A stretch of 64,000 nucleotides of DNA from Planctomycetota bacterium (GTDB lineage Bacteria > Planctomycetota > Phycisphaerae > Phycisphaerales > SM1A02), in contig QWPV01000003.1 in assembly GCA_003671055.1 (NCBI GenBank), forward strand, positions 1-64,000, given 5' to 3'. Position 1 is the first letter of the stretch, and every line of letters starts with the position of its first letter. Below the pieces are notes generated by a model. That model made no database searches and had not been told where the DNA came from. It saw only the letters and a program-made list of their open reading frames with translations. Both the position numbers and the translations under genes were made by a program. Shown piece after piece: positions 35,867 through 43,460 of the stretch.

Positions 35867-37390
35867 ATGAGCGGAATGCGATTTGAAACTTCTCAGGGAC
35901 TCCGCCAAGGGCAACACCTTGCGCTGACACCGAAGCTCATTCAAGCCGCGGAAATTCTCGAACTTCCGTTGCTTGCGTTGCGTGAACGACTCGATCGCGA
36001 ATTGGAAACAAATGTCGCGCTTGAAATCGTGGAGCCTGGCGACGATCGACCTCTGAAGCGCGATCTCAGTAATGCGCGCACGTCTGATTCTCGTGAAGAT
36101 GCACCACAAGGCGGCGGCTCAACCGAGTTCGAACGGCTTCGTCGCATGGAGCGCACCTACGGCGATCAGTGGTCGGGTGATCGTGACTATCGACCAACAC
36201 GCAGCGGTGGCGATTCCGATGAAGATCCGAAACTCGCTGCGATGAACAACACCGCGGGCAATGGTGCATCGCTCACGGAACAGTTGCTTGAGCAGTGGTC
36301 GTTCTCCGATATTCATGACCCTGAACTTCGTGCCGCGGGCGCACGCATCATCGAATACATCTCGCCTGAAGGCATGCTCAACGCAGATCTCGAAACGATC
36401 GCGCAGCAATCGATCTCGATACCAGGCTGCGATTGGTCTCCCGCAATTCTCGAACGCGCGCTGCTCCGGTTGCAACATGAACTGAGTCCTCCAGGGATCG
36501 CAGCGAGTTCAGTGCGCGAGTGCCTGCGCCTCCAAGCAGAAGCATTGCTTGAAGAGTCGCACACGGAAGCCACTGCATTAGTGTGGAGTGACGCGCTGCT
36601 GCTGCTTGAAACCTATTACGACGACTTCCTCGCGAATCGATTGCCGAAGATCTGCGAAGCGAGCGGTATGGACTACGCGCGCATCGACGCAGCGAAGTCA
36701 GTGATGCGTCGGCTGACCACCGCGCCTGGCTTCGCGCTTGTTCCACCGTCGAACGAACCCATCATTCCCGATGTCGTGGTTGAACTCGACATCGACGCGA
36801 ATGAATACACCGTGCGATTGCCCGACGAACTCATTCCGCGCCTGCGCGTGTCGCGTGAGTATCAAGAGCTCGCAGATGACAAGACCGCAGATAAGGCCGC
36901 ACGAACTTTTGCTGGTGACAGCGTCCGCGCAGCGAAGACCTTGCTCGAAGCGATCGAGCAACGCAAGACAACACTCGCGCGCGTGACGAGAGCCGTGGTC
37001 GCTCGACAGCGCGAGTGGTTTGAGCACGGACCAAATTTTCTTCGTCCAATGCCGATGACGGAACTCGCCGAGCAACTCGGTATTCATGTGAGCACCGTGA
37101 GCCGCGCCGTTGCAGAGAAGTGGATGGCATCACCGCGAGGACTCGTACGACTCCGCGACTTCTTCGCAGGTGGCACAGAAAACAGTGACGGCGAAGATGT
37201 TTCGTGGAACGCGATCAAGGCGATGCTCAAGCAAGTCGTCGACGCCGAAGATCGAAAGCACCCACTCTCCGACCGCGAGATCGCAGAGCAACTCAAAGCT
37301 CGCGGCGTAGAAATCGCACGACGCACCGTGGTGAAATACCGCGAGCAACTGAGTATTCCCGCCGCAACCGTCCGCAAAGTGCATGCGTGA
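35867..37390 (+). CDS. rpoN: RNA polymerase sigma-54 factor
   Basis: A 507-aa sigma factor needed for -24/-12 promoters. Region I is LRQGQHLALTPKLIQAAEIL with LRERLDRELETNVALEI; the core-binding region follows a charged linker; the HTH reads TELAEQLGIHVSTVSRAVAE; the RpoN box ARRTVVKYRE spans 484-493. Its last seven codons are one copy of a 22-bp direct repeat whose other copy is at 41533-41554. A -10-like TACGAT lies 28 bp before the ATG. It probably serves the flagellar promoters upstream. Confidence 0.95.
   Translation: MSGMRFETSQGLRQGQHLALTPKLIQAAEILELPLLALRERLDRELETNVALEIVEPGDDRPLKRDLSNARTSDSREDAPQGGGSTEFERLRRMERTYGDQWSGDRDYRPTRSGGDSDEDPKLAAMNNTAGNGASLTEQLLEQWSFSDIHDPELRAAGARIIEYISPEGMLNADLETIAQQSISIPGCDWSPAILERALLRLQHELSPPGIAASSVRECLRLQAEALLEESHTEATALVWSDALLLLETYYDDFLANRLPKICEASGMDYARIDAAKSVMRRLTTAPGFALVPPSNEPIIPDVVVELDIDANEYTVRLPDELIPRLRVSREYQELADDKTADKAARTFAGDSVRAAKTLLEAIEQRKTTLARVTRAVVARQREWFEHGPNFLRPMPMTELAEQLGIHVSTVSRAVAEKWMASPRGLVRLRDFFAGGTENSDGEDVSWNAIKAMLKQVVDAEDRKHPLSDREIAEQLKARGVEIARRTVVKYREQLSIPAATVRKVHA
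37369..37390 (+). repeat. 22-bp direct repeat, left copy (att-like, rpoN 3' end)
   Basis: Begins CGTCCGCAAAGTGCATGCGT and ends with the rpoN stop TGA. A perfect copy lies at 41533-41554. Insertion at the 3' end of a conserved gene, keeping it intact, is the classical pattern for site-specific integration. Confidence 0.9.
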
Positions 37391-37448
37391 TGGGGTAGCA
37401 GGTTGTCGTTCGGTGCTGACGGAATTTTTTGAATTGCGCAGAGGGGAC

Positions 37449-37476
37449 TTGCTTTTTTTTTTGGGGGGGGTAGGCT
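37449..37476 (+). promoter_or_regulatory. Homopolymer-spaced promoter of the island (phase-variable candidate)
   Basis: TTGCTT (37449-37454) and TAGGCT (37471-37476) are separated by 16 bp made only of T8 then G8; the full tracts are T10 and G8. The hexamer TAGGCT ends six bases before the ATG at 37483, like the leaderless genes elsewhere. Slippage in either tract would change the -35/-10 spacing. No stem precedes the T-run, so it is not an rpoN terminator. Confidence 0.5.
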
Positions 37477-37482
37477 TCCTTT

Positions 37483-38934
37483 ATGCGCATGGGGTTGCAA
37501 ACGTGGAGGTTCAGGGATTTTTGGAATTGCCCTTCGGTTGGCAGCGTTTTCGCATTGATCGCGTTGGCGTCTGCCGTCGTGGTGCTGGATGTAGCTAGCT
37601 CCGCCGAAGGAGCATGTAGCGCGGAGGAGCGCGAATGGCTCCAAGATGCAGAGCAGAAGGAGGGTGCGCCGCGGATCTCCGTTGCATCCGCGCAGATGCT
37701 TCCGAGCCTTGCGCATGAGTTGATGGTGTTCGTCATGGATGAGCCATCATTCCGAGAGCTTTGCGCAAAATTGAAGTTGTCCTTGGCGCAGCAGAGCGAT
37801 GCCGACGCGCTCTTCCTCGCGTACCAGATTCGCGTGCAGGCCATTGAAACGAGCATCGCGAAGACACTCGAGCCGGTCGTCCCGCTATTCACCTCGCTCG
37901 AATTGATTCCTAGGGAGGAACGAAATGGGCAGACTTCCATTCACCTTGCGCTTGCGGATTGTTTCGGAAAGGCGTTTCACGAAGCGGAATCTGCGATGCG
38001 GTCGGCGATGGGAAACTTCGAATCGTCGTTGTTGGCGAGTTTGACAGAAGCGCAGGCACTTCTCGCGTCGTGCGCCACGCGTGATTGGCGGCGAAGCGTC
38101 ATGCTCAACCGAGGAAACGACCACACGCGCGGCGTGTTCGATCTCGCAGCGCATGTCGACGTCGGGCGCGTTCTTGATGCGAGCGAGTGCGAGGGACGCG
38201 CAGTGTCGGCGTGGATTGCGGAGAGTGATGGGGAACCTGCATCAAATGCACAGGAGCGAGCGGATCGTCGGAAGACTGTTGCTCTCGTCGTCGAGCAGTA
38301 CCATCTTAAGCTTGACGCACAACTCACTCGTCGGTTTTGGTCTGACATCGAGGATCACGATCGTGCGCGCATAGCAGCGATGCGTGGGGATGGCGAACGT
38401 CGAACCCAATTGTGGAACAAGATCAGTCAGCGTTGGATGGAGGTTTTCCGAGTGAACGAGCGATTCGCGCGCGTGCTCGAAGACTTGATGAAGCGGAGCG
38501 GCGATCTGTCTGCTGCATCTGAGTGGCGGCAGCGTTTTTCCGCGGAGTATTTTCCCTTCACCTACGCCTCGAAGAGCGCGGACGCAGCGTACGACTGGAT
38601 AGTCCGGAGCAACCCAGAGATGACTTCGCTCGCGGAAGTACACCGCATATATTCAGCGCATTGCGCCCAACGAGAAGAGCTCCGAACCGTATTGATGCAG
38701 CGACTGATCGAGAGATGCGGAACATCCGCCGATGCGCACGGTGAGGCGATATCGCTTCGAAACTCAGGAGACCTCGATTGCATCAGGTCAACATTGGATC
38801 GGCTCCGAGTCATGAATGACAGCATGGTGCATGCACTCGGGTGCTGTCTCGACATTGAGCATGCGACAGAGTTCGACCGCGTGCTTGCGGCAGCGAAGGT
38901 CTCGAGCATCGCGGGCGAGCGAATGGAGTATTGA
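37483..38934 (+). CDS. Island gene 1: secreted protein of unknown function
   Basis: A 483-aa protein with an N-terminal signal (VGSVFALIALASAVVVLDVA, probable cleavage after SSAEGA). The mature part is mainly helical and charged, e.g. ALFLAYQIRVQAIETSIAKT and EDLMKRSGDLSAASEWRQRF, with a few scattered cysteines. No domain recognised. An in-frame ATG at 37489 is an alternative start. First gene of the island, so it is the most exposed to the variable promoter. Confidence 0.75.
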   Translation: MRMGLQTWRFRDFWNCPSVGSVFALIALASAVVVLDVASSAEGACSAEEREWLQDAEQKEGAPRISVASAQMLPSLAHELMVFVMDEPSFRELCAKLKLSLAQQSDADALFLAYQIRVQAIETSIAKTLEPVVPLFTSLELIPREERNGQTSIHLALADCFGKAFHEAESAMRSAMGNFESSLLASLTEAQALLASCATRDWRRSVMLNRGNDHTRGVFDLAAHVDVGRVLDASECEGRAVSAWIAESDGEPASNAQERADRRKTVALVVEQYHLKLDAQLTRRFWSDIEDHDRARIAAMRGDGERRTQLWNKISQRWMEVFRVNERFARVLEDLMKRSGDLSAASEWRQRFSAEYFPFTYASKSADAAYDWIVRSNPEMTSLAEVHRIYSAHCAQREELRTVLMQRLIERCGTSADAHGEAISLRNSGDLDCIRSTLDRLRVMNDSMVHALGCCLDIEHATEFDRVLAAAKVSSIAGERMEY

Positions 38935-39023
38935 CAGAGTATGGAGAGCCTTGTAGTCGGCTTCGTATCGATGGGATTGAATTCTGAAGGACTAGGAAAA
39001 ATTTCACACAAGGAATCGGATCT

Positions 39024-39419
39024 ATGTCTCATCGCATCAGTTGCAAGCGTTTGCTGTTCACATTTGGTGGCGTCGCACTCGTGCTCGCTGGAATCGTGCA
39101 TGGATTGCACGCAGCGCCGCCTTGGCCGGGGATTCCCGAGAAGTGGTTTACCCAATGCGTGAGCACCAGCCCATGCTCAACAACCGCATCGTGTACTGGT
39201 CAAGTTCCGGGGAGCATGTGCTCCAAATGTCAGTTTCCATACTCTCGCAGCGTGTGCTTCGAGTGGGATTGGGGAGATTGTCAGGAGCGACAGAATCCAG
39301 TTACGAATTGTGGACTTCAGTGGAACGGGTATTGCGAGGCGCTCCCGGGCGGCGCGACGACCTGTGTTGATTTGCAGGTGGGCAACTATTGCTTCCGTGC
39401 GCAATGCCAATCCACTTAA
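39024..39419 (+). CDS. Island gene 2: small secreted protein with 12 cysteines
   Basis: A 131-aa protein: signal peptide (LLFTFGGVALVLAGIVHGLHA, cleavage near residue 30) followed by ~100 residues containing twelve cysteines, e.g. CVSTSPCSTTASC, MCSKC, DWGDC, YCFRAQC. An even number of cysteines in an exported protein suggests disulfide bonding. AAGGA lies ~10 bases before the ATG. No family recognised; resembles small Cys-rich exported proteins seen in planctomycetes only in general style. Confidence 0.78.
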   Translation: MSHRISCKRLLFTFGGVALVLAGIVHGLHAAPPWPGIPEKWFTQCVSTSPCSTTASCTGQVPGSMCSKCQFPYSRSVCFEWDWGDCQERQNPVTNCGLQWNGYCEALPGGATTCVDLQVGNYCFRAQCQST

Positions 39420-39438
39420 CGAGAGGGAGTGAGTTCCG

Positions 39439-40710
39439 ATGTTTCACGCTTCTCGCGCGTTTTTGATTCTCGCCTTCGCAATGTCTGTGCGGCAATCGTT
39501 GTCGGACAGCACGAGCGAGCCTCCGAACTTCACCGCAGCCGCACTCGCAGACTTGGTAGCGCAATCGAAGGGACTCCTTGTCGGCGACGTAGATACCACC
39601 ATCGAAGTGCGTTCATTCGGGCGACGTCCGGCAGACAGTGCGCCTCCAAGTGTTGATGCAGTTACTGCGAGTGATGAATGGGACACGTCAAGGGTTGACT
39701 ACTGGCAGTCCACCCGATTCCTCATCGCTCGGGACGAGATGTACGTTGTGTCCCGCGACTGTTTGCATCCTGATCCGACGTTGTGCTTCGAACAATACAA
39801 CGTTTGGTCAAACGGCACGTGGAGTCAACGTGTGCGTGGCGATGGAGCCGTCACGCTCTTTGGTGAGATCGCGGCACCTGATCTCTTCGGATACAGCCTG
39901 GTGTTCAATGAAATGGATGGCCGGTTCGGCTCTGCTCGGCGCATTGATCAAGAGATCAGGAGTGGAAAATGTATTGATCAATCGTTGGACAAAGGCGTCT
40001 TGCGATATCGGTTCGAGTCGCCAGATGCTGCGGGTCGGGGCACGCGAGTCGAAGTGCGGGCTGAGTTGTCCCCACAGTTTCGATTGATGTCCTACACAAT
40101 TGAGGGGTTCTTCGAAGGCGACCGCGCCCGCCCTCGTGTCCGAGAGACGTACCGCGTCGTCGAGTGGCAAGCGTGGGGAGAAGGCGTCATTCCCGTCGAA
40201 GCAGAACTTGTGGGTTGGAGTGCGGCCGATCCATCTCGCGAGCGGCCGACGGCAACCCAGGCGATGAAGACGTATCGGCGCACAGCGATTTGCGAGATTG
40301 AAAACATGGATGCGGTCAATCATCTCTTTGTGACGCCGATGCCTGCTGGAACAGCCGTCTACGATGATCGTCTGCGCTTGAGTTATGAAATCGGGAAGCC
40401 GATGCTCGCCGTCGAAGGCGTTCTCTATGAATTGCATGCGCCGCTTATGGAGCCACCGGGTGACAACCTCTCGGAGCTGATTCGTTCGGCTGTTCGACAC
40501 ACGGCCATCCCGACTGATACGCAGCGCGAGTCCTCTTCGCGTCTCGTAACGGATGATGTCGCCTCGGATGGGCGCAATGACGGGCGAGCACCGCGGAGTT
40601 GGTGGCCAAGCACCTGCGGCGTGTGGATAGTTCTCGGTGGCGCCGTCGTGATGGGAACCGCCGCAGTATTCGTCGTGGCGCGTTGCGTGAGGAAATCAAA
40701 CGCATGTTGA
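39439..40710 (+). CDS. Island gene 3: exported protein with C-terminal membrane anchor
   Basis: A 423-aa protein with an N-terminal signal (SRAFLILAFAMSVRQSLS), a ~350-residue beta-rich extracytoplasmic part (e.g. STRFLIARDEMYVVSRDC, YRFESPDAAGRGTRVEVRAE) and a C-terminal helix (GVWIVLGGAVVMGTAAVFVV) followed by a basic tail. GAGGGAG lies before the ATG. Overlaps gene 4 by seven bases. The strand pattern loosely recalls lipoprotein-carrier folds, but no motif supports a function. Confidence 0.75.
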   Translation: MFHASRAFLILAFAMSVRQSLSDSTSEPPNFTAAALADLVAQSKGLLVGDVDTTIEVRSFGRRPADSAPPSVDAVTASDEWDTSRVDYWQSTRFLIARDEMYVVSRDCLHPDPTLCFEQYNVWSNGTWSQRVRGDGAVTLFGEIAAPDLFGYSLVFNEMDGRFGSARRIDQEIRSGKCIDQSLDKGVLRYRFESPDAAGRGTRVEVRAELSPQFRLMSYTIEGFFEGDRARPRVRETYRVVEWQAWGEGVIPVEAELVGWSAADPSRERPTATQAMKTYRRTAICEIENMDAVNHLFVTPMPAGTAVYDDRLRLSYEIGKPMLAVEGVLYELHAPLMEPPGDNLSELIRSAVRHTAIPTDTQRESSSRLVTDDVASDGRNDGRAPRSWWPSTCGVWIVLGGAVVMGTAAVFVVARCVRKSNAC

Positions 40711-41510
40711 AGTCGCACTTGCGCCCGCATCTTTCATTGCTCGGTGTCGTTGGTGGAATTTTGGGAGCGTTCGTGCTGCTCTGGAGCGCCCTTCGACCCA
40801 ACCTAACAACGCTTGCAGGCGCATCGGAGGAGCGGTCGGTTGGAGCACTTGAACTCGTTGGCGGAAGTGCAAAGTATGACTTCGGAGCTGTCGACATCGA
40901 GCACGCGCAATCCGAATTGCGTTGCGTGTTTCGGCTGAAGAACATCAGCGACGTTCCTCTACGCATCCTGCCTATATCGACAACCTGCGGGTGTACGGCG
41001 GCACGCGTAGAGCGCGAGGTGATCGCGCCCGGCGAAATCGCCGAAGTGAGCGCCGTGCTCCACATCCTCGACGTCGGAGCAAAATCTGCGCAGATTTTCG
41101 TTCGACATGATTTGGATCCCGAACATCGAGTGGTGCTTACGGTTGCGGGAACTGGATGGCGTGCCCGCCAACTTCTCTGTGCGCGAGTGCATGTCGACGT
41201 GCGAGAAAAATCTGACGCGCGCGTGGACTTGCATCTCACGGATTACAACTCTTCAAGTCCGTTGCCTCCCGTGGAGATCGAAGTCTCCGAGGGGATTGTT
41301 GCGCGCTGCTCTCCATGGCGTTGCGTTCAGCCGCTGCAGCGGGAGGGTGGATTGCCGGCGCGTTGGGAGAGCACGCTTGTGATCGGTGTTGATCACAGTT
41401 TCCATAGTCCGTCGAGCGCAGTAGAGGCGACAGTTGGAGTGCATGTCGCAGGAATCCCGCACCGAGTGATTCATGCGCGGATTCTTCGTGAGGAAGAATC
41501 CGTTCGCTGA
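40704..41510 (+). CDS. Island gene 4: membrane-anchored DUF1573 protein
   Basis: A 268-aa protein with an N-terminal anchor (LLGVVGGILGAFVLLWSAL) and a DUF1573 domain: KYDFGAVDIEHAQSELRCVF, RLKNISDVPLRILPISTTCG then CTAARVE and IAPGEIAEVSAVL. DUF1573 proteins are extracytoplasmic Ig-like domains with a conserved CGC; function not established. A second beta domain without a name follows. ATG overlaps the upstream gene, so the pair is coupled. Confidence 0.85.
   Translation: MLKSHLRPHLSLLGVVGGILGAFVLLWSALRPNLTTLAGASEERSVGALELVGGSAKYDFGAVDIEHAQSELRCVFRLKNISDVPLRILPISTTCGCTAARVEREVIAPGEIAEVSAVLHILDVGAKSAQIFVRHDLDPEHRVVLTVAGTGWRARQLLCARVHVDVREKSDARVDLHLTDYNSSSPLPPVEIEVSEGIVARCSPWRCVQPLQREGGLPARWESTLVIGVDHSFHSPSSAVEATVGVHVAGIPHRVIHARILREEESVR
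41479..41501 (+). terminator. Hairpin at the 3' end of the island operon
   Basis: Perfect 9-bp stem GGATTCTTC-GTGAG-GAAGAATCC across the last codons of gene 4. No T-run follows, so it may be an RNA-stability or Rho-assisted element. Confidence 0.45.
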
Positions 41511-41532
41511 ACGATCCGAGGACCGAGAGTGT

Positions 41533-41554
41533 CGTCCGCAAAGTGCATGCGTGA
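41533..41554 (+). repeat. 22-bp direct repeat, right copy
   Basis: Perfect copy of 37369-37390 (rpoN 3' end). It is not in a gene here; about 50 bp beyond it begins the epimerase gene, which would have followed rpoN directly before insertion. Confidence 0.9.
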
Positions 41555-41606: not shown

Positions 41607-43460
41607 ATGCGGATCTTTATCACCGGTGCTACTGGAACGATTGGTCGTCGTCTCGTTGCGGACCGTGCGCATCGGGGTGATCGTGTCATTGCGTTGAGTC
41701 GGCATCCTGCGCGGGCGCGTGAGTTGTTTGCGCCGATTGGTCGTTCGGTGGAAGTGGTGGCGGGGGATGCGCGCTTCTCTGGGATCTGGCAGCAAAAGCT
41801 CGAAGCGTGTGATGCGATTGTGCATCTTGCGGGGCACAACACTTCGCATGAGCGTTGGACTGTGCGCATTCGTCGCGAGATTCGCGTCTCTCGGCTTGAG
41901 AGTGCGAAGCGGCTCATCGAAGGCGTGCGGAGTGCGAGTGTGCCGCCGAAGTCTTTCGTTGTGGCTTCGAGTGTGGCGGCGTTTGGTGATCGTGGATCGG
42001 AAGTGCTCGATGATCGCGCGTCGTACGGATCTGGATTTCTCGCGGGACTTGCTGCGGAGTTTGAGAGCGAGTGCGCGCGTGGTGAAACGCTTGGTATGCG
42101 CGTGGTGACGCTGAGGCTCGGCGCGGTGCTTGATCCTTTCGGCGGCATGCTCGCGCGGCTTGCGCCGTGGTTTCGTCGCGGTTGTGGCGTGATTCCTGGC
42201 AAAGGTACGCAGGCTGTGCCGTGGATTCATTGGCGCGATGCGGTCGGAATGTTTGACTGGGCGATCGCGAGTCGCGGCATTCTCGGTTCGGTGAATGCAG
42301 TTGCCCCTGAGCTTGTGCAGTGGTCGCGGCTCTCGAATGAATTCGCGACGCGCTGCGGTGCGGGTGGGATGGCTGCGCCTGTGCATGCAGTTCCAGCGAT
42401 CGTCATGCGCATCCTCCTCGGTCAGGGTGCGTCGGAATATCTCGCGTCGCGTCATGCTGTTGCGAGCCGTGCAACCATGCATGGATTTCGCTTTGAATTC
42501 CCGCAACTTGCGGGTGCGCTCGATGAATGCTGCGCGGAATGGAGTCCTTCGCCGCGCAGTTCGTTGCTTGCGAAGTCAAATGGTCAGGTGCTTGTGGAGG
42601 TGGATGCGAAACCGCGTGTTGATGCGGTTCCTTTGGAGGGCATCGCATTCGACACACTCGTCAGCGCGCGAGTCGATGCGCCGTTGAGCGCAGTCGAACC
42701 GCCGCAACGGACCGACGGCGTGCTCATTGATCTCGATCACGGATTGAGCGCGAGCAACGGTCGATTGCTTCCCGAAGCGCGCGAGATCCTTGAGATCATT
42801 GCGCGACATGATCGCGCGCATTTCGGGCTCTTCTCGCAGCGACCATCGTGGGAATTGCCCGACCTCGCTGTCGGTCCACTCGCAACGCGCGCGCAACTGC
42901 TTTCCGGCGGGACATTGCTTCGCACCACGCGGCAGGTTGGAAACTTGACAGCAGCACACAAGATCGAATGCTCGCGCATTCCAGTCGAAACCGTGGTTGA
43001 GTTGTTGAAACGGCTCGGCGCATTCGCACCGCGCATCGGGCTTGTGTTCGAACATCCCGACGGCTTTGACACGCCCGAACCAAATCGTTTGCGCCATCCG
43101 CAGCACGGACATCCGATCTTCATCACACGCGTTTGTGCCATTTCCGAACTTGAGGTTGCCGAGACGATGCGCATTCATCTTGTGGGTGGTGCAGAAGAAC
43201 GCGGCACGGTTGTCGAGTGGATCATGCGTGAGTTTGTCGCCAATGGCACGCTCTCGCTTGAAGCGAAATCGCCGTGGATCGTGTCGATGTGGGCGACAGT
43301 TCCCACGCGAGCGCTCGCGCATGAATTCGCGATGGTTGCTGGATTAGATGAGCATGCGCACGCGATTCCGATCCGCAGCATCACTGAACTTCGGCGCGGA
43401 TTTCGGCACATTCTCGAGCCACCCGCGAAGGTCATCACGACTGAGCCGACGCGCGACTGA
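41607..43460 (+). CDS. TIGR01777-family epimerase fused to a degenerate HAD-like domain
   Basis: A 617-aa two-domain protein. Residues 1-~300 are an SDR/epimerase of the YfcH/TIGR01777 type: MRIFITGATGTIGRRLVADR, VHLAGHNTSHERWT, LRLGAVLDPFGGMLARLAPW, IPGKGTQAVPWIHWRDA. Residues ~370-610 start with VLIDLDHGLSASNGRLLPEA and run as a HAD-phosphatase-like fold (AREILEIIARHDRAHFGLFS, later KIECSRIPVETVVELLKRLG), but the catalytic DxDGT motif is DLDHG. The second domain is probably not an active phosphatase. Substrates unknown. Confidence 0.82.
   Translation: MRIFITGATGTIGRRLVADRAHRGDRVIALSRHPARARELFAPIGRSVEVVAGDARFSGIWQQKLEACDAIVHLAGHNTSHERWTVRIRREIRVSRLESAKRLIEGVRSASVPPKSFVVASSVAAFGDRGSEVLDDRASYGSGFLAGLAAEFESECARGETLGMRVVTLRLGAVLDPFGGMLARLAPWFRRGCGVIPGKGTQAVPWIHWRDAVGMFDWAIASRGILGSVNAVAPELVQWSRLSNEFATRCGAGGMAAPVHAVPAIVMRILLGQGASEYLASRHAVASRATMHGFRFEFPQLAGALDECCAEWSPSPRSSLLAKSNGQVLVEVDAKPRVDAVPLEGIAFDTLVSARVDAPLSAVEPPQRTDGVLIDLDHGLSASNGRLLPEAREILEIIARHDRAHFGLFSQRPSWELPDLAVGPLATRAQLLSGGTLLRTTRQVGNLTAAHKIECSRIPVETVVELLKRLGAFAPRIGLVFEHPDGFDTPEPNRLRHPQHGHPIFITRVCAISELEVAETMRIHLVGGAEERGTVVEWIMREFVANGTLSLEAKSPWIVSMWATVPTRALAHEFAMVAGLDEHAHAIPIRSITELRRGFRHILEPPAKVITTEPTRD

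What the first reader, a model, noticed from the sequence alone, without database searches (positions are those of the whole stretch)
37369..41554. Four-gene exported-protein island inserted at the 3' end of rpoN, bounded by a perfect 22-bp direct repeat
The last 22 bp of rpoN recur exactly at 41533-41554 with four genes between: a secreted 483-aa protein, a 12-Cys secreted protein, a C-terminally anchored exported protein and a DUF1573 membrane protein. Insertion at a conserved gene's 3' end with att-like repeats is typical of integrative elements, yet no integrase is visible. All four products act outside the cytoplasm and genes 3 and 4 overlap, so they look like one functional module, perhaps a disulfide-rich surface or antagonism system. 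A chance 22-bp match in 64 kb is very unlikely (order of 10^-4 for equal base use).
Basis: partly seen in the sequence, partly recalled or inferred. Interest (0 to 1): 0.86.

Follow-up and report, generated by a model that had tools for sequence, protein, structure and literature searches.

The report
Wandering four-gene module beside rpoN
A recently inserted block of four genes for exported proteins sits after the bacterium's rpoN gene; related blocks turn up at many other places in related planctomycetes, several of them bracketed, like this one, by a duplicated end of the neighbouring gene and none seen to carry an integrase of its own, so it looks like an undescribed mobile gene module.

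Summary
The 22-bp perfect repeat is the only repeat of its kind in the window and occurs exactly twice in the genome. Three same-genus genomes, and genomes of other genera, have rpoN followed directly by the epimerase gene, so the 4164-bp block is an insertion. The four genes (A helical exported; B 12-Cys exported; C anchored; D DUF1573; C and D fused in some relatives) form a recurrent, patchy, very divergent module: four copies in this genome, four at other loci in one congener, none in two others. The closest relative of this copy is in another genus, not among its own paralogs. Other copies show the same anatomy: target gene, module, duplicated 3' end of that gene (sucB twice in tandem, DUF1501, an EF-hand gene, C itself; 65 to about 310 bp). 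The duplicated ends share no core motif, no module examined carries an integrase, and the only tyrosine recombinases found in the genome are XerC/XerD. I therefore favour insertion by general recombination or template switching, which leaves the target gene whole, over one site-specific integrase; an integrase-less relic (CIME) remains the main rival. The function is unproven; a variable surface or antagonism system is the best guess.

The parts
35867..37390 (+). rpoN (sigma-54), target gene, left intact
   Evidence: Pfam Sigma54 domains E 6.8e-55; orthologs in 60 of 61 relatives
37369..37390 (+). repeat copy 1 = last 22 bp of rpoN with stop codon
37391..41554 (+). inserted segment, 4164 bp (module plus repeat copy 2)
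   Evidence: absent from G001, G002, G003; in other genera the epimerase gene also lies close to rpoN
37483..38934 (+). gene A: exported all-helical protein, 483 aa
   Evidence: no Pfam/NCBIfam/PADLOC family; helical model, pLDDT 60; family of 47 non-redundant members
39024..39419 (+). gene B: exported small protein, 12 conserved Cys in the mature part, 131 aa
   Evidence: alignment of 21 relatives: Cys pattern kept, loops hypervariable
39439..40710 (+). gene C: exported, C-terminal transmembrane anchor, beta-rich, 423 aa
   Evidence: profile family of 24 non-redundant members; low-confidence model, pLDDT 48
40704..41510 (+). gene D: N-terminal membrane anchor plus DUF1573 with TCGC motif, 268 aa; overlaps C by 7 bp
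   Evidence: Pfam DUF1573 E 1.6e-13; invariant CGC; fused to C in L116 and L121
41533..41554 (+). repeat copy 2 (duplicated rpoN 3' end)
41607..43460 (+). NAD-dependent epimerase/DUF1731 gene, ancestral right neighbour of rpoN
   Evidence: Pfam; next to rpoN in same-genus genomes

Best explanation
The island is one copy of a mobile four-gene module (A-B-C-D) for exported, cell-envelope proteins that spreads among planctomycetes of this family and settles beside conserved genes. Shown: it was inserted between rpoN and the epimerase gene in this lineage; it carries no recombinase; the insertion left rpoN intact with a second copy of its 3' end on the far side; other module copies show the same gene / module / gene-end-copy anatomy at unrelated genes. 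Inferred: DNA bearing the module is joined to the chromosome by the host's general recombination or replication restart (single crossover of a circle carrying a gene end, or template switching that resumes a short way upstream), which duplicates the stretch between leaving and rejoining; [quoted passage not shown] Inferred function: B is the variable, disulfide-rich secreted product; C and D form a membrane-anchored partner complex; A is an exported helical helper. The whole is probably a diversifying surface or antagonism system.
For: Empty sites. The module recurs in many genera with A-B-C-D order. C copy numbers within the genus are 4, 0, 0, 4; the best-matching pairs between G000 and G003 (C35 with C76, C55 with C80) share no flanking genes. 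Nearest relative of the window copy is in another genus (C 46%, A 38%), not its own paralogs. Same anatomy elsewhere: G114 sucB intact, module, sucB 3' end 276 bp at 96%, second island, sucB 3' end 65 bp; own contig C4 about 310 bp from the DUF1501 3' end into DUF418 (C48 suffix of 137 bp and C4 prefix of 127 bp), while congeners have DUF1501-DUF418 without a module; G111 EF-hand gene 3' end; G028 last 141 bp of C1 repeated at the end of C2 at 99% although the bodies are only 34% identical in protein. Five of about 30 modules are straddled by repeats of 50 bp or more, against 1.7% of control positions (p about 1e-4). No shared core motif; only XerC/XerD.
Against: Most module copies show no flanking repeat now. 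The 22-bp repeat is short for RecA-mediated crossover. At C55 the order is reversed (gene-end fragment, module, whole gene). The C4 repeat is inferred from contig ends, not read through, and an ISL3-like transposase remnant adjoins its left copy. No circular intermediate was seen. The function is inference only.
Confidence: 0.5

Rival explanations
1. Integrase-less relic of a site-specific integrative element (CIME-like): a tyrosine or serine integrase, now lost or acting in trans, inserted the island at an attB in the rpoN 3' end; the 22 bp are attL/attR.
For: Gene / island / gene-3'-end architecture is the textbook form; the second island and third sucB end in G114 look like tandem accretion. 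Integrase-less islands with direct repeats of a gene 3' end are known (Dehalococcoides ssrA islands, PMC3146451; CIME definition, PMC5704250).
Against: Different target genes with no common core; repeats reach about 310 bp and run past the gene end; none of the modules examined carries an integrase; the only two tyrosine recombinases found in this 96%-complete genome are XerC/XerD; the rpoN ends of 40 relatives show no such use.
Confidence: 0.3
2. Transposition by an IS-type transposase in trans, with a 22-bp target-site duplication.
For: IS remnants lie beside two modules (ISL3-like on C4, IS4-like in G114).
Against: No terminal inverted repeats at the island ends (sequence); repeats vary from 22 to about 310 bp, unlike a fixed target duplication.
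Confidence: 0.06
3. Ancestral gene block lost in relatives, with a chance repeat.
For: Base composition equals the host's.
Against: All three congeners and other genera lack it while keeping rpoN-epimerase linkage; expected number of such repeats about 5e-5.
Confidence: 0.03
4. Function other than antagonism (compatible with any of the insertion routes): an envelope-structural or ligand-binding complex whose B subunit varies with its ligand.
For: DUF1573 and a possible LolA/LprG-like fold for C (weak matches E 0.03-0.1) fit periplasmic binding or trafficking roles.
Against: Patchy, multi-copy, very divergent distribution is unusual for a housekeeping envelope complex.
Confidence: 0.4

Closest known systems
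CIMEs (cis-mobilizable elements) and integrase-less ssrA islands of Dehalococcoides
   Same: No recombinase; flanked by a direct repeat of the target gene's 3' end; tandem accretion at one gene
   Different: Here many unrelated protein-coding targets, repeat length 22 to about 310 bp, no common core, and a conserved four-gene cargo instead of a conserved site
e14-type integration at the icd 3' end (from own knowledge, not tested)
   Same: The element supplies a replacement gene 3' end of one to two hundred bp
   Different: e14 carries its own integrase and uses one site; these modules do neither
DUF1573 (PF07610) / NCBIfam OS_HP2 proteins
   Same: D is a member of DUF1573 by Pfam score
   Different: Here DUF1573 is tied to, and sometimes fused with, the undescribed C protein in a fixed gene order
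LolA / LprG / VioE fold
   Same: Weak structural resemblance of the beta-rich part of C
   Different: Not significant, model of low confidence; C has a C-terminal membrane anchor

Membership tests
Site-specific integrative element / CIME | Insertion at a gene 3' end with direct repeat and empty site in relatives | tested here: met
Site-specific integrative element / CIME | Same attachment core in independent insertions | tested here: not met
   no shared k-mer among five duplicated ends; this weighs against one integrase for the whole family, not against an integrase at rpoN alone
Site-specific integrative element / CIME | Integrase encoded by the element, or recognisably in the genome (a CIME by definition has lost it) | tested here: not met
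   only XerC/XerD among tyrosine recombinases; serine recombinases not searched
Site-specific integrative element / CIME | Excision and circularisation | not testable with these tools
   needs reads or DNA
DUF1573 (gene D) | Pfam PF07610 above gathering cut-off | tested here: met
   50.9 bits against 26.1
Known anti-phage defence system | Match to PADLOC models | tested here: not met
   no match for any of the four genes
Phage or plasmid cargo | Relatives in phage, viral or plasmid records | tested here: not met
   C: none in viral contigs, phages, plasmids; A: none in plasmids; no PHROG below E 0.05
LolA/LprG-like fold (gene C) | Significant structural match | tested here: inconclusive
   LprG E 0.029, LolA E 0.10, model pLDDT 48

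The most novel reading that the evidence does not exclude
A class of recombinase-free mobile gene modules that spreads by general recombination at the ends of conserved genes, each insertion duplicating the 3' end of its target so that the gene survives, and carrying a diversifying exported antagonism system built around a 12-cysteine effector.
Probability: 0.2. Interest if true: 0.8.

Novelty: new variant of a known kind. Interest (0 to 1): 0.6.

Why it matters
A, B and C have no Pfam or NCBIfam family and a text search for DUF1573 with planctomycetes found no paper, so this is probably an undescribed, recurrent and fast-moving exported module. The repeated gene-end duplications offer a set of natural events with which to ask how small islands without any recombinase enter bacterial genomes, a question that is usually answered by assuming a lost integrase.

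Tried and rejected
att site for XerC/XerD (dif): no dif-like site found in the own genome by pattern, and the 22 bp has no XerD-like half-site by eye; not pursued. Homology of the left island end to the ancestral intergenic region: not significant. tRNA or tmRNA at the duplicated ends: none. RNA families in the island: none. Foreign base composition: none. The 127-bp repeat at the start of contig C4 first looked like a pure k-mer artefact; contig C48 ending in the DUF1501 3' end showed that it is the visible part of a longer repeat. The 39-bp repeats around the module of G169 (L115) are a dispersed hairpin, not a flanking duplication. A common motif TGCGTGA at rpoN and sucB ends is not shared by the other ends.

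Full report
What was checked. The 22-bp sequence CGTCCGCAAAGTGCATGCGTGA occurs at 37369-37390, where it is the end of rpoN with its stop codon, and at 41533-41554. With up to three mismatches it has no other copy in the whole genome and none is expected in shuffles of the window. It is the only exact repeat of at least 22 bp spaced 1-9 kb in the window. The rpoN 3' ends of 40 relatives show no downstream repeat longer than 15 bp.

It is an insertion. In the three same-genus genomes G001, G002 and G003, rpoN is followed after 92-114 bp by the same epimerase gene, with nothing between. The same linkage is seen near rpoN in G028, G014, G030, G029 and G009, other genera of the family. The right flank of the island keeps a piece of the ancestral spacer (GTTAGTCTGCG) shared with G003, about 45 bp closer to the repeat than expected, so a little spacer may have been lost (modest statistics). 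Base composition does not set the island apart.

The four genes are a module. A, B and C match no Pfam or NCBIfam family above its cut-off and no PADLOC model; D has DUF1573. Searches of 181 genomes of the family found relatives of A, B and C in a minority of genomes, repeatedly side by side. Iterated profiles gave 47 A, 18 B, 24 C and 19 D non-redundant members, and the order A-B-C-D recurs across genera, with C and D fused in the own-genome copy on contig C4, in G111 and in others. B keeps twelve cysteines while the loops between them vary freely. Some copies lack B, D or both, or have D cut short (G112, G028). A class-wide search found C in 13 of 397 genomes. The closest relatives named by record title are Planctomycetota MAGs ZH-13MAY13-plancto44 and B63T3L11. 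No relatives of C were found in viral contigs, phages or plasmids, and none of A in plasmids.

The module moves. With a C profile the own genome has four copies (contigs C24, C4, C35, C55), G003 has four on contigs C33, C14, C76 and C80, G001 and G002 have none. The window copy is closest to G112 of another genus, not to its own paralogs; the G003 C14 copy is closest to G111 of that same other genus. The best pairs between G000 and G003 share no flanking genes. Two conserved neighbourhoods were hit twice by different modules: the ketosynthase locus in G112 and G003, and the esterase-DUF4097-rlmE-EF-hand locus in G000 and G111.

The same junction anatomy recurs. In G114 an intact sucB is followed by a module, then by the last 276 bp of sucB (96% identical), then by a second island with an IS4-like transposase and an exported orphan, then by the last 65 bp of sucB. 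On own contig C4 the module lies between DUF1501 and DUF418. Contig C48 ends with 137 bp of the DUF1501 3' end that recur at C4:5489-5625, and C4 begins with the 127 bp found at C4:5672-5798, which together imply a direct repeat of about 310 bp around an ISL3-like remnant plus module; G001, G002 and G003 have DUF1501 and DUF418 adjacent with no module. In G111 the 3' end of an EF-hand/dockerin gene is copied to the far side of the module (158 bp at 97% plus 76 bp at 84%). In G028 a second A-C unit follows the first, and the last 141 bp of C1 recur at the end of C2 at 99% while the rest of the two proteins is 34% identical. On own contig C55 a 318-bp end of a DUF4097 gene lies on the other side of the module from the whole gene, 80% identical in DNA and nearly identical in protein; here the order is reversed, so it fits less well. 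Across 673 kb of control sequence three repeat pairs of comparable size were found, none of them a gene end around an island, covering 1.7% of positions; 5 of about 30 modules are straddled, p about 1e-4. The count of 30 is approximate because some flanks are cut by contig ends and because related modules are not fully independent.

How it probably works. The duplicated ends share no core, differ in length from 22 to about 310 bp and can extend past the gene end. No module examined carries an integrase, and the only tyrosine recombinases found are XerC and XerD; serine recombinases were not searched. One site-specific integrase is therefore an unlikely cause for the family as a whole, though a lost or trans-acting integrase remains possible for a single case such as the 22-bp one at rpoN. 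General recombination of a circle carrying a gene end, or template switching during repair, explains variable repeat lengths, unrelated targets and survival of the target gene. Which of the two is not resolved here. For function, C gave only a low-confidence model with weak matches to LprG, LolA and VioE and A a helical model. Rapid turnover, divergence and a cysteine scaffold with variable loops suggest a surface or antagonism role, but no test was possible.

Comparison with what is known. Integrase-less islands bounded by a repeat of a gene 3' end are known as CIMEs, formed when an integrative element loses its integration genes but keeps attL and attR (PMC5704250); Dehalococcoides ssrA islands give 15 examples without an integration module and a 20-bp repeat (PMC3146451). 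The anatomy here is the same; the unrelated targets, lack of a common core and shared four-gene cargo differ.

Noticed in passing
L168 10803-14071: A second, unrelated island (IS4-like transposase plus a 404-aa exported orphan) inserted at the same sucB end in G114, with its own sucB 3' end copy: tandem accretion.
   Followed up: partly
L116 5190-5480; L220 9212-9709 and 12387; L194 5126 and 8906: Dispersed short repeats with core GGACAGGCA/TGCCTGTCC cluster at the 3' ends of modules in the own genome; on C35 a 26-bp pair brackets the module.
   Followed up: no
L115 507-8131: A roughly 40-bp hairpin (CCACAGCACCTCCGTATTCACGGGGGTGTTGTTGTTGAG) occurs in several copies around the module of G169, probably a terminator-like dispersed repeat.
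   Followed up: no
L222 11808-12491 and 16479-17165: A 687-bp repeat, 81% identical, of a paralogous gene region next to a module in G003.
   Followed up: no
L220 5138-5455 and 10155-10472: Gene-end copies 80% identical in DNA but nearly identical in protein: both were long under selection, or one came from another species.
   Followed up: partly
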